NCBI RefSeq assembly: GCF_900115495.1
Contig: NZ_FOWR01000020.1
Coordinates: 1-36,009 of the forward strand
Origin: Enterovibrio norvegicus DSM 15893
Lineage (GTDB): Bacteria > Pseudomonadota > Gammaproteobacteria > Enterobacterales > Vibrionaceae
Direction: 5' to 3'
Length of the DNA: 36,009 nucleotides
Shown: piece after piece, positions 1-36,009 of the stretch
How the letters are laid out: the number at the start of each line of letters is the position of its first letter
Numbering within the stretch: the stretch's first letter is position 1
The notes under the pieces: model-generated
The model's database searches: none
Seen by the model: the letters and a program-made list of their open reading frames with translations, nothing else
What the model was told of the DNA's origin: nothing
Made by a program: the position numbers and the translations under genes

Positions 1-51
1 CGTGACCTCAACCTTGGCAAGGTTGCGCTCTACCAGCTGAGCTAGTGTCGC
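1..51 (-). tRNA. tRNA-Gly (GCC), cut by window edge
   Basis: The reverse complement gives the 5' acceptor strand, D arm and anticodon arm of a glycine tRNA, with loop TTGCCAA (anticodon GCC). The T arm and 3' end lie outside the window. The visible part is identical to the complete tRNA-Gly at 35880-35955. It follows tRNA-Cys closely and is probably in the same transcript. Confidence 0.95.
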
Positions 52-54
52 AAA

Positions 55-128
55 TGGAGGCGCGTCCCGGAGTCGAACCGAGGTCCACGGATTTGCAATC
101 CGCTGCATAGCCACTCTGCCAACGCGCC
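55..128 (-). tRNA. tRNA-Cys (GCA)
   Basis: The reverse complement folds as a 74-nt cysteine tRNA with encoded CCA. Acceptor strands GGCGCGT and ACGCGCC pair, the anticodon loop holds GCA, and the T loop is GGTTCGACTCC. It is the first tRNA of a minus-strand operon whose promoter lies at about 179-206; tRNA-Gly follows three bases later. Confidence 0.97.
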
Positions 129-178
129 TTTGTTTCTTTCCGCTTTAGAAGTTGTCTTCCGCTGCGGTATGGGTCGGC

Positions 179-33186: not shown

Positions 33187-33918
33187 CTTCCTCGAACGAA
33201 CAACCTAAATGGCATGAACGATGAGTTCTTGGAGATATAAGTGTCAAATGAAACACACGCTCTTTTATTGAAGAGCATTAACCTGTGCGCGTGATCGTTC
33301 ACGGCGCGGAGGCAAACGTGTGGTAGAGGCAAAGAAAACGCACGCAGCTAAGCACATAAATACATTCATATGTTTGGTCAACGCGAGATTAAAGCCTCAA
33401 TTGATCGGGATGATCAAGGCTCAGTAATAATACTGGAATGTGGTAAAACGAAAGCGAAGTGAGTGGATAACTTAATCACTGTTGGGTTCCTCAATATGCC
33501 CCTAACCTCTCGGCCGGACAGCTCTATCAATGCCCTTCTACTGGAGTGAAATCTCCAGTACCTACTTGCAACATTCTGTGAATTTACAGATTGTCACGTG
33601 TGCCCCGAAAAACTGATGTTCGAGATTGTTGCGAAAGGTAACACAGCGTGATTTTCGAACACAAGAAAATTCTTTAACCAATTGATAAAAAATAACACTC
33701 AATTTTGTTGTGGGGTTTTAACAGCCTTAAAACGTATGCAGCCTTGCCTACTTTGATATTAAACCACTATATTTACATGGTTAATACTCAAAATGGGTTT
33801 AACATACTGTTAAATATATTATTTATGAGGATAGGAAAGCGAGATACGAGAAATGCAGGGCACAGCCGTCTTTGCATCTGAGAAGTCAGATACACACAGC
33901 AAAAAGGCAGGACAGATA
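33187..33918 (-). promoter_or_regulatory. long leader and promoter region of the norspermidine operon
   Basis: A gene-free stretch of about 0.7 kb, part AT-rich and part structured. Perfect inverted repeats are TACTGGAG-TGAAAT-CTCCAGTA (33539-33560), GTTTTAA-CAGCC-TTAAAAC (33715-33733) and TTTAACA-TAC-TGTTAAA (33798-33814). A GC-rich segment (about 33480-33560) stands out from its AT-rich surroundings and has several possible stems. I cannot match it to a known riboswitch. The AT-rich palindromes are candidate operators near the promoter, and the GC-rich part could be a structured 5' leader. Confidence 0.45.
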
Positions 33919-34383
33919 TTAAGACGCTATTTTACACGGCGTTCGAACTTCAAAAACGGCTTCAATCTCTACTGGCATATTGTCAGGTAACGAACTCACC
34001 CCCACAGCAATACGCGAGTCTTTTTCAGTTTCACCGAATATTTCATCAAAAAGATCTGAACAGCCTTCAATGACTTTAGGGTGGTTAATAAATGATGGGT
34101 CACTGTTAACCAGGCCTATCACTTTAACAACGCGAGCGACGTTATTTAATGATCCTAAATCATGCTGAATAGCCGACAACAAGTATAAGCCGATCTCTCT
34201 CGAGTACTCATAAGCATCTTCAACAGAAATATTCTGACCTACTTTCCCCGTTGTGGAGTGAGGTCCTTGATATGAAATAAACAGTAAATTTCCGGTTTGA
34301 AAACCGTGTCCTAAATCTCCAGTCGGATTGGTTAACTTTGGCAATACCACACCAGATTCCATGACAATTGTTTCTGCATCCAT
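33919..34383 (-). CDS. RidA/YjgF-family protein
   Basis: A 154-residue member of the Rid (YjgF/YER057c/UK114) superfamily. Founding members deaminate reactive enamines and imines released by PLP enzymes. The C-terminal pattern SRIAVGVSSLP...VEIEAVFEV matches the family and includes the conserved arginine of the active cleft. It is longer than typical RidA (about 130 residues) because of N-terminal and internal additions, so it belongs to a divergent Rid subgroup. The start at 34383 has no clear SD; another ATG lies at 34362. It lies upstream of the norspermidine operon on the same strand, separated by about 0.78 kb, so it could serve the PLP enzymes there (inferred). Confidence 0.85.
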   Translation of the reverse strand: MDAETIVMESGVVLPKLTNPTGDLGHGFQTGNLLFISYQGPHSTTGKVGQNISVEDAYEYSREIGLYLLSAIQHDLGSLNNVARVVKVIGLVNSDPSFINHPKVIEGCSDLFDEIFGETEKDSRIAVGVSSLPDNMPVEIEAVFEVRTPCKIAS

Positions 34384-34940
34384 AATTACTGGCTCTCAAC
34401 CGCGTTTTAGATAACGTTCTAGATTACGAAGGTGGCTAATAAATACACCATCCTGTCAAAGGATAACAAACATTCTCTTTAATGCCACATATCTGTTAAA
34501 TATTATTTCACTTTTATAACTAGTTTATCAAAAACGAAGATCGAAGATAAAGATCGTCTGCCATTATTCATTGCGATCATTTTTTCCTTATCATTCGAAT
34601 TCCAATTAATATTCGTATCAGTTTCGATGCTAAATCCAAGGATCCTTTACGCAGAATATCAGCTTATTTCCCCTCACTAACCCAACCTACACAGCGTGTT
34701 CTATCATACAGTCTCGTAGAGCCCTGATGCAGTACAACTGCCGCACAACTGCCGCACCAAGGGTGCAGCGTAAGCCTTATAAATATCTGCTGTCTTTGAA
34801 TAACCGTTTTAATTTACCTTACCTAGGTCAGCGTAATGAACGATCTTATATTCAGATCTATTTGTTAAAATTCCCTGCATCTCTCTCAATGAATGTCGAC
34901 TTCAATGATCAATGAATAAGGATCCTTTCTTACCTATCAC

Positions 34941-34970
34941 ATGATCGAAAAAAGGATCCTAAGCGATCAT
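34941..34970. repeat. nested inverted repeat with GATC sites
   Basis: Outer arms ATGATCG and CGATCAT flank a 16-bp core holding the palindrome AGGATCCT. Three GATC sites lie within 30 bp. Confidence 0.7.
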
Positions 34971-35182
34971 AAAACACGATCCTCCGCTCTCTTTGACACT
35001 ATTTGCTCACTATGGCTCAGATAGAAAGCGACAAAAAAGTAAAGGGAGCGACAGTGTAAATTGATCTGCACGAGGAAAGCATGGCTGCTCCCCTTCAAAA
35101 ATATGTCAGTGTTGCTTAAGCCGAGAGAACGCATCTTTAACACCAATTCAGCTCACCTCTCAGTGAATCTTTCGCTATATGT

Positions 35183-35191
35183 TTATCCACA
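35183..35191 (+). promoter_or_regulatory. perfect DnaA box
   Basis: TTATCCACA, the strongest DnaA-binding 9-mer, followed five bases later by a GATC site. A single 9-mer can occur by chance, but it lies in the same gene-free region as the GATC cluster. Confidence 0.45.
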
Positions 35192-35548
35192 CCACGATCG
35201 GTATACCGAATATTCAATCATGAGGGTCTTCATTGTGCGCCAAGAAGACAAGGGAAGAAAACTCAAGATAAACACAAAACGGCTTACAACAGTCCCTTAA
35301 AGTAAAACCACATCACTCTCTCGCTATAACGACATGTAGCAACGTCTAGCGATATGAGATACACAGTTCCATTACGATGGAATAGAAAGAATGCCTCTCA
35401 GAGTAATATCTAGGACGCTATATACGGCTTTTAAAAAAGAGTACGAGGGTTTCAGGTGAGCGTTTTGTAAGAAGCACTGATGCTGGTCTTGAAACGCAAC
35501 AAGGCGTAAAGGTCAAAGACCATGGATGAGAATGTAGAGCGCGGAAAA

Positions 35549-35581
35549 TAAAAACGGCCCACAAGCAAGCTTGTGAGCCGT
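35549..35581 (-). terminator. intrinsic terminator of the right tRNA operon
   Basis: On the minus strand ACGGCTCACAAGC-TT-GCTTGTGGGCCGT (35581-35554, one G-T pair) is followed by TTTTTATTTT. It begins nine bases past the tRNA-Leu 3' end and shows that tRNA-Leu is the last gene of the operon. Confidence 0.9.
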
Positions 35582-35590
35582 CGTTATAGA

Positions 35591-35679
35591 TGGTGCCCCG
35601 GGCCGGACTTGAACCGGCACAACGCGAACGTCGAGGGATTTTAAATCCCTTGTGTCTACCAATTCCACCACCAGGGCAC
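35591..35679 (-). tRNA. tRNA-Leu (TAA)
   Basis: The reverse complement folds as an 89-nt class II leucine tRNA with encoded CCA. The anticodon arm GGGAT-TTAAA-ATCCC holds TAA, and a long variable arm follows. It is last in the operon, followed by a strong terminator. Confidence 0.97.
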
Positions 35680-35760
35680 GCAATTCTTTATTGCGATGAT
35701 AGGCACCATCGTCGCATGCATTTCTGCATACTTACTTTCATCAAAATGAAAGTCAATGTT

Positions 35761-35820
35761 TGGAGCGACACACGAGGTTCCCGATCTTCAAGGCTTAGGC
35801 GTGACCTCAACCTTGGCAAG
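35761..35820 (-). pseudogene. broken tRNA-Gly remnant
   Basis: Two blocks match the neighbouring intact tRNA-Gly exactly: TGGAGCGACACACGAGGTTC (acceptor and T arm, 35761-35780) and CGTGACCTCAACCTTGGCAAG (anticodon arm, 35800-35820). Between them 19 bp replace the normal 5 bp, and the 5' half (D arm, acceptor strand) is missing. It cannot fold as a tRNA. Confidence 0.85.
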
Positions 35821-35879
35821 AGTTCCTTGCGTGTTGCACTTCCGACGAATCAGAAGCTGCTTCTCCGAAGAGAAAAATT

Positions 35880-35955
35880 TGGAGCGACACACGAGGTTCG
35901 AACTCGTGACCTCAACCTTGGCAAGGTTGCGCTCTACCAGCTGAGCTAGTGTCGC
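35880..35955 (-). tRNA. tRNA-Gly (GCC)
   Basis: A complete 76-nt glycine tRNA with encoded CCA and loop TTGCCAA (anticodon GCC). It lies between tRNA-fMet and tRNA-Leu in the minus-strand operon. Its 5' part is identical to the cut copy at 1-51. Confidence 0.97.
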
Positions 35956-35989
35956 ATAGTTACACGACGTAACGTCGAATAACGTAATG

Positions 35990-36009
35990 TGGTTGCGGGA
36001 GCCGGATTT
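35990..36009 (-). tRNA. tRNA-fMet, cut by window edge
   Basis: Only the last 20 bases are visible. On the minus strand they read AAATCCGGCTCCCGCAACCA, matching the T arm and CCA end of initiator tRNA. Identification rests on this short end. Confidence 0.75.

What the first reader, a model, noticed from the sequence alone, without database searches (positions are those of the whole stretch)
34384..35300. Origin-like motif cluster in a gene-free region: GATC sites, ATGATC repeats, AGGATCCT palindromes and a DnaA box
Twelve GATC sites occur in about 440 bp (roughly two expected by chance), six of them in 75 bp, an enrichment like that of oriC-type DNA. ATGATC occurs four times in both orientations, AGGATCCT three times, and a nested inverted repeat lies at 34941-34970. 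A perfect DnaA box (TTATCCACA) lies at 35183-35191. In Vibrionaceae, RctB-bound iterons of the second chromosome contain Dam sites, and crtS on the first chromosome controls its timing. This region could be a RctB-, DnaA- or SeqA-binding control site, or a decayed origin. The link to replication is inference.
Basis: partly seen in the sequence, partly recalled or inferred. Interest (0 to 1): 0.7.

Follow-up and report, generated by a model that had tools for sequence, protein, structure and literature searches.

The report
Orphan GATC array beside ridA gene
A gene-free stretch on a marine bacterium's chromosome carries Dam-methylation sites packed as tightly as at its replication origins, kept in place in a closely related species, yet it looks like neither an origin nor a known replication switch, so it may be a stand-alone site that senses freshly copied DNA.

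Summary
The motif cluster is real: 12 GATC sites in 443 bp, 6 in 75 bp, three AGGATCCT palindromes and a nested inverted repeat. In the only other genome found with the locus (Enterovibrio baiacu), 11 of the 12 GATCs and all three palindromes keep their places, while DNA between and beyond the two blocks is essentially unalignable. The DnaA box is not conserved.

The named replication readings fail. The single crtS copy lies on another contig, the rctB/ori2 iteron array on a third. The region has no RctB-iteron match above random background and no conserved DnaA box.

One result does point to replication. In 1.93 Mb of this genome (35%), only five places hold 9 or more non-coding GATCs in 450 bp: oriC1, ori2, the dnaA promoter, crtS and this region. 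In E. [quoted passage not shown]

Best reading: an orphan, lineage-specific SeqA/Dam-type GATC array upstream of a RidA-family gene, slowing remethylation after fork passage and probably tuning that promoter. Array and conservation are shown; SeqA binding and any effect on ridA are inferred. Main rival: an ordinary operator array for an unknown regulator.

The parts
34539..34981 (.). whole GATC array: 12 GATC in 443 bp (24.7 per kb in 34500-34985, against 3.8 per kb over 1.93 Mb sampled of this genome)
   Evidence: 11 of 12 conserved in E. baiacu
34539..34644 (.). proximal block: GATC 34539, 34552, 34575, 34641, next to the ridA promoter candidate
   Evidence: all four conserved; GATC bases 16 of 16 and other bases 94 of 125 identical in 34520-34660
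34842..34981 (.). distal block: 8 GATC; the last six (34907-34981) are the densest 80-bp non-coding cluster in 1.93 Mb sampled
   Evidence: 7 of 8 conserved, spacing of the last six identical; GATC bases 30 of 32, others 90 of 119 identical in 34832-34982; ranking
34639..34646 (.). palindrome AGGATCCT, copy 1
   Evidence: conserved; 17 copies in the genome, 3 here
34919..34926 (.). palindrome AGGATCCT, copy 2
   Evidence: conserved; with copy 3 the only pair 8-38 bp apart in G000 and in G005; of the three other genomes searched G011 and G016 have one pair each elsewhere, G015 none
34953..34960 (.). palindrome AGGATCCT, copy 3
   Evidence: conserved
34941..34970 (.). nested inverted repeat: ATGATCG and CGATCAT around AGGATCCT
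   Evidence: 29 of 30 bases identical in E. baiacu, read from the alignment
33919..34383 (-). RidA/YjgF-family gene, 154 aa, whose upstream region holds the array
   Evidence: PF14588 and PF01042 above cut-off; 97% identical in E. baiacu; 4 of the 16 other genus members have a match, at 42-43%
34502..34531 (-). sigma-70-like promoter candidate for ridA (TTGATA-18-AATAAT, TG before the second hexamer)
   Evidence: 10 of 12 matches, but 4 such sites found against 4.7 expected in shuffles, so weak; lies in a 94%-identical stretch
35183..35191 (+). DnaA box TTATCCACA, probably incidental
   Evidence: present, changed in E. baiacu
35591..35677 (-). tRNA-Leu(taa), far boundary of the gene-free interval
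   Evidence: tRNA-Leu also found near the DABA RNA in 7 of 13 other genus stretches and in E. baiacu

Best explanation
The region is an orphan Dam/SeqA-type GATC array in the upstream region of a RidA-family gene. When the fork copies it, up to 12 GATCs become hemimethylated together. [quoted passage not shown] coli. The proximal sites lie just upstream of the ridA promoter candidate, so the likely output is a replication-timed, methylation-sensitive effect on ridA. Shown: array, density, conservation of positions in one other species, absence of crtS core, iterons and conserved DnaA boxes, presence of seqA. Inferred: SeqA binding, delayed remethylation, effect on ridA.
For: In 1,933,753 bases of this genome the only 450-bp places with 9 or more non-coding GATCs are oriC1 (14), ori2 (13, and 9 in a second window), this region (12), the dnaA promoter (10, 11 with coding) and crtS (9); the next place has 6. 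In 80-bp windows this region is first among non-coding places with 6, the other four have 5. GATC bases are kept better than their surroundings: 46 of 48 against 253 of 415 over 34520-34982 (Fisher 1e-7), and 46 of 48 against 184 of 244 within the two aligned blocks alone (8e-4). SeqA is encoded in both genomes. In E. coli, SeqA ChIP signal correlates with GATC number per 500 bp, and the two highest peaks are oriC and the dnaA promoter (PMC2996942, passages).
Against: Coding DNA reaches such counts too: one 80-bp window with 6 and seven 450-bp windows with 9 to 11 GATCs in ORFs of the same sample, and tight GATC triples occur 186 times in the genome. GATC spacing is not helically phased beyond chance (P 0.66), although E. 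coli oriC sites are not phased either (PMC5145175, passages). Conservation covers the whole AGGATCCT and ATGATCG words, more than SeqA needs, and GATC flanks within the array resemble each other a little more than chance (P 0.025). The region was found in only 2 of 296 Vibrionaceae genomes, so it carries no general replication function. No binding, methylation or expression data were available.
Confidence: 0.45

Rival explanations
1. An ordinary operator array: an unknown regulator recognises a GATC-containing palindrome (AAGGATCCTT, ATGATCG/CGATCAT) upstream of ridA; Dam methylation may or may not matter.
For: The three AGGATCCT copies and the nested repeat are conserved as whole words; chance expectation of three such words in 322 bp is about 5e-6 per genome; GATC flanks within the array resemble each other slightly more than those of random GATC sets (P 0.025, mostly coding background).
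Against: Most of the 12 GATCs share no larger word (site list). Of the 14 other AGGATCCT copies in this genome 10 lie in ORFs of 200 aa or more, and the only one with the same flanks in both species is upstream of dnaA, so no regulon is visible.
Confidence: 0.32
2. A decayed or dormant origin of an element that entered beside tRNA-Leu together with ridA.
For: GATC-rich, AT-rich DNA (GC 32.6% in 34384-34650 and 35.1% in 34832-34982 against 47.4% for the window); ridA is also low in GC (40.9%) and its close homologue was found in only one other genus member; the slot beside tRNA-Leu differs in size and ORFs between relatives. Two words resemble the E. coli unwinding 13-mer at up to 2 mismatches.
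Against: No ORF of 80 aa or more in the interval, so no initiator or integrase gene inside it (further off only 8 proteins were scanned); no direct-repeat family there beyond two copies; no conserved DnaA box; 13-mer-like words are as common at crtS (4) and ori2 (3); decay does not fit the conservation of GATCs; no match in plasmids at E 1e-5 and one 39-base match at E 0.05 in phages.
Confidence: 0.08
3. A RctB-bound or crtS-like control site for chromosome 2.
For: crtS in this family also carries a tight GATC array, and the region has one TGATCA that is conserved in E. baiacu.
Against: crtS core absent from the window at up to 3 mismatches and present once elsewhere; iteron score at random level and no TTACGG word (one in the E. 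baiacu counterpart); GATC flanks unlike ori2 (P 0.40-0.51) and crtS (P 0.79-0.85); RctB binding to crtS does not need Dam (PMC11711613, passages).
Confidence: 0.04
4. A chance cluster kept by the closeness of the two species.
For: Only two species have it, and the 6.7-kb block next to it is 88% identical between them, so some conservation is expected for free.
Against: The array is conserved while DNA between and beyond the blocks fell to 41% identity, the level of unrelated DNA in a forced alignment; the other non-coding clusters of this density in the sample are all replication loci.
Confidence: 0.06

Closest known systems
dnaA promoter region and oriC as SeqA-sequestered GATC clusters (E. 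coli; counterparts here on contig C40)
   Same: Comparable non-coding GATC density; AAGGATCCTT also occurs upstream of dnaA in both species; GATC flanks of the array resemble those of the dnaA promoter slightly (P 0.0145 against non-coding background, four comparisons made).
   Different: No conserved DnaA boxes, a different contig, limited to two species, next to a metabolic-type gene.
crtS of Vibrionaceae
   Same: Tight GATC array in an intergenic region: 13 of 18 genus genomes have six GATCs at fixed places +57 to +105 from the core, G000 has five of them, two genomes have two, two have none. [quoted passage not shown]
   Different: No crtS core sequence; the real crtS is on another contig.
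ori2 with RctB iterons
   Same: GATC-rich intergenic DNA
   Different: ori2 here has six TGATCAT-type iterons every 23 bp; the array has irregular spacing and no iteron-level match.
Dam-dependent promoter switches (pap, agn43)
   Same: GATCs upstream of a promoter, where Dam could compete with a binding protein
   Different: Those use two or three GATCs inside known regulator sites (number recalled; Dam/OxyR competition at agn43 from PMC13337833, passages); here 12 sites and no known regulator.

Membership tests
crtS | core CAGnATATGTAACTnATGCTTTCGG with up to 3 mismatches, once per genome | tested here: not met
   0 hits in window; single hit at G000:C47:10203-10227; a match in 150 of 150 family genomes, one per genome in the table
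ori2 / RctB iteron site | array of iterons with TGATCA, next to rctB | tested here: not met
   best iteron score 7.83 against random median 7.8 and 95% point 12.75; one TGATCA; rctB and iterons on C9
RctB 29/39-mer site | TTACGG-type motif | tested here: not met
   0 TTACGG/CCGTAA in 34384-35300, 1 in the E. baiacu counterpart; word only, no full model
DnaA-type origin (oriC) | several DnaA boxes, conserved | tested here: not met
   one perfect box, not conserved; 0 perfect and 1 with one mismatch in 34500-34985; oriC1 control has 2 perfect and 4 with up to 1 mismatch
DnaA-type origin (oriC) | genomic context mioC/mnmG | tested here: not met
   the place that fits oriC1 is on C40, between ORFs placed as mioC and mnmG (gene names recalled from gene order and sequence)
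SeqA-sequestered GATC cluster | dense GATC in non-coding DNA, at oriC-like density | tested here: met
   third place by non-coding 450-bp count, first by 80-bp count in 1.93 Mb, 35% of the genome
SeqA-sequestered GATC cluster | GATC pairs two to three helical turns apart | tested here: inconclusive
   pairs at 22-23 bp exist, but not more phased pairs than random placement gives (P 0.66)
SeqA-sequestered GATC cluster | SeqA present in the cell | tested here: met
   PF03925 over cut-off in G000 and G005
SeqA-sequestered GATC cluster | SeqA occupancy and prolonged hemimethylation | not testable with these tools
   needs ChIP or methylation data
Dam-dependent promoter switch | GATC methylation alters binding of a regulator and transcription | not testable with these tools
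   needs reporter assays and dam/seqA deletions

The most novel reading that the evidence does not exclude
A stand-alone sequestration element: a GATC array as dense as an origin, with no initiator sites, whose SeqA-type hemimethylation timing couples a newly gained metabolic gene (or local chromosome behaviour) to passage of the replication fork in one Enterovibrio lineage.
Probability: 0.27. Interest if true: 0.7.

Novelty: new variant of a known kind. Interest (0 to 1): 0.46.

Why it matters
[quoted passage not shown] A natural array of equal density with no initiator sites, kept in two species and not found in the others, is a clean test of whether GATC density alone is enough for sequestration, and of whether a cell uses it to time an ordinary gene.

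Tried and rejected
Rejected: crtS; RctB iterons; a paralogous copy of oriC1, ori2, dnaA promoter or crtS (local alignment no better than GATC-keeping shuffles, P 0.41, 0.64, 0.46, 1.0); structured RNA in either block or strand (z -1.29 to 0.50; no Rfam hit there); helical phasing; relatives in plasmids and phages; other RidA-family loci with a GATC array (8 loci outside the two species, at most 6 GATC in 450 bp and 2 in 80 bp). Flank likeness to the dnaA promoter (P 0.0045 against mostly coding background, 0.0145 against non-coding) and to oriC1 (0.024, then 0.11) is weak, and by this measure the known replication loci do not resemble one another either (12 control comparisons, P 0.12-0.81), so it gets little weight.

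Weak points of my own tests: the GATC ranking covers 35% of the genome; the stretches with ori2, crtS and the dnaA promoter were included because those loci had been found there, while oriC1 was met unsought beside the dnaA promoter. Coding was defined as ORFs of 100 aa or more, without gene calling. The genome-wide list of GATC triples (186 in G000, 162 in G005) was capped in the output, so no full ranking came from it. The interval between the DABA RNA and tRNA-Leu was read in 13 of the 16 other genus genomes; tRNA-Leu was seen in 7 of those 13 stretches, so in the other six the interval is not bounded. Conservation rests on one pair of close species. One search used a pattern from which I had dropped a base; it missed even the window, and its zero counts are void. 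One search was an empty script.

Papers: seen as passages PMC5854411, PMC11711613, PMC5991422, PMC6139311, PMC6090056, PMC5145175, PMC2996942, PMC13337833; abstract only PMC493266. Absence from print: searches of the held library listed no paper that by title or abstract concerns this locus; most subscription papers are not held, and the NAR 2018 crtS paper was not held.

Full report
Setting. The window is contig C41 of a 5.45-Mb, 99-contig genome. Gene order at the right end: a fused aminotransferase/decarboxylase gene (minus strand) with its DABA-DC-AT RNA element (33480-33629), a RidA-family gene (33919-34383, minus), 1.2 kb without ORFs of 80 aa, then tRNA-Leu and tRNA-Gly.

The observation. 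Fourteen GATCs lie in 34384-35300, twelve of them in 443 bp. None of 4,000 Markov simulations of the interval reached 14 in total, 6 in 80 bp or 12 in 450 bp. AGGATCCT is rare: 17 in this genome and 12 in G005, three of each being here; three in 322 bp would be expected about 5e-6 times per genome.

Conservation. Aligned with E. baiacu, ridA is 90.1% identical, its immediate upstream (34384-34538) 94.2%, the proximal GATC block (34539-34650) 79.5%, the DNA between blocks 40.9%, the distal block 71.8% (34832-34902) and 86.2% (34903-34982), and the rest up to 35538 41.4%. Eleven of the twelve GATCs are intact; the lost one is 34855. Spacing of the last six, 14-22-12-10-13, is identical. GATC bases are identical in 46 of 48 cases, other bases in 253 of 415 over 34520-34982 and 184 of 244 within the blocks. 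The DnaA box differs in E. baiacu. A search of 296 Vibrionaceae genomes, own included, found the region in 2; of 18 genus genomes the close ridA (97%) is in the same 2. In 13 of the 16 other genus genomes the stretch beyond the DABA RNA was read and no such array seen (at most 6 GATC in 450 bp and 3 in 100 bp).

What it is not. The crtS consensus (PMC5854411, passages) is absent from the window at up to 3 mismatches and found once in each of 18 genus genomes, on contig C47 here; 150 of 150 family genomes have it. RctB is encoded on C9 beside an array of six TGATCAT iterons at 23-bp steps. A weight matrix of those six gives 7.83 as best score in the region; 300 random windows have median 7.8 and 95% point 12.75. 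TTACGG is absent. The conserved part has no perfect DnaA box and one with a single mismatch; the E. baiacu counterpart has none; the oriC1 control has 2 perfect and 4 with up to one mismatch. Local alignment to oriC1, ori2, dnaA promoter and crtS is no better than shuffles. No RNA structure is indicated.

What points to replication all the same. GATC clusters were ranked in 1,933,753 bases of this genome (102 stretches, 35%; 242,318 bases outside ORFs of 100 aa). By non-coding GATCs in 450 bp the order is oriC1 14, ori2 13 (a second ori2 window 9), this region 12, dnaA promoter 10 (11 with coding), crtS 9, then 6, 5, 5. By 80 bp it is this region 6, then crtS, ori2, dnaA promoter and oriC1 with 5 each, then 4. 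Coding DNA does reach such numbers: 6 in 80 bp in L175, and seven 450-bp windows with 9 to 11, among them one inside rctB. Stretches with ori2, crtS and the dnaA promoter were included on purpose; oriC1 was not sought. oriC1 and the dnaA-rpmH region were recognised by gene order and sequence, the names being recalled. In E. coli the SeqA ChIP signal correlates with GATC number per 500 bp, with oriC first and the dnaA promoter second (PMC2996942, passages). V. cholerae ori2 is likewise sequestered by SeqA (PMC6090056, passages). SeqA is encoded in both genomes here.

Mechanism. Most likely the array is read as a GATC array: all sites become hemimethylated together behind the fork, SeqA binds cooperatively and slows Dam. 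Its nearest target is the ridA promoter candidate 34502-34531 (such matches are no commoner than in shuffles); the first GATC begins 8 bp upstream of it. I infer a cell-cycle-timed or methylation-sensitive effect on ridA. Whole-word conservation of AGGATCCT and of the nested repeat leaves a dedicated regulator nearly as likely; both could be true, as where Dam competes with OxyR at agn43 (PMC13337833, passages).

Context. ridA and the array have low GC (ridA 40.9%, blocks 32.6 and 35.1%, window 47.4%), and in seven relatives where both ends were seen the slot between the DABA RNA and tRNA-Leu measures 1.1 to 8.2 kb with different ORFs, so the pair may have arrived together. No ORF of 80 aa or more, hence no integrase or initiator gene, lies in the interval itself.

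Verdict. Observation confirmed; crtS, RctB-iteron and origin readings not met; the SeqA-type reading is the best supported and directly testable. The locus is lineage-specific, so claims about general replication control are not warranted.

Noticed in passing
L047-L064 and L091-L105 (crtS loci): crtS is followed by a GATC array at fixed places (+57, +64, +69, +86, +94, +105 from the core) in 13 of 18 genus genomes, five of the six in G000, two of six in two genomes, none in two small genomes; 15 of 15 loci read from two other genera (of 132 non-genus genomes with crtS) keep +57 and +64. GATCs in crtS are published; the better conserved 3' part was reported dispensable for licensing (PMC6139311, passages), so what keeps this spacing is open.
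   Followed up: partly
L033:7686-8135 (G000 contig C9): Eleven GATCs in 450 bp lie inside the rctB reading frame itself, beside ori2.
   Followed up: no
L123:1201-1210 and L112 (dnaA-rpmH region): AAGGATCCTT, the rare palindrome of the finding, also sits in the GATC-rich region upstream of dnaA in both species.
   Followed up: partly
window 33480-35590: The slot between the DABA-DC-AT RNA and tRNA-Leu looks like an insertion hotspot in the genus: 1.1 kb in three species, 1.8, 3.1, 7.3 and 8.2 kb with different ORFs in four others.
   Followed up: partly
window 1-136 and 35590-36009: Both ends of the contig lie in tRNA genes of kinds that are repeated within one cluster in E. baiacu, so the contig probably ends there for assembly reasons; a stretch like part of tRNA-Gly lies at 35759-35820.
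   Followed up: no
L069:293, L070:293, L084:294 (starts of contigs C5, C6, C47): The same GATC-containing sequence near the start of three contigs suggests a repeated element at contig ends.
   Followed up: no
L195-L197 (G000 contig C24, 1-60000): Several coding stretches of this contig have 9 to 11 GATCs in 450 bp; cause not looked into.
   Followed up: no
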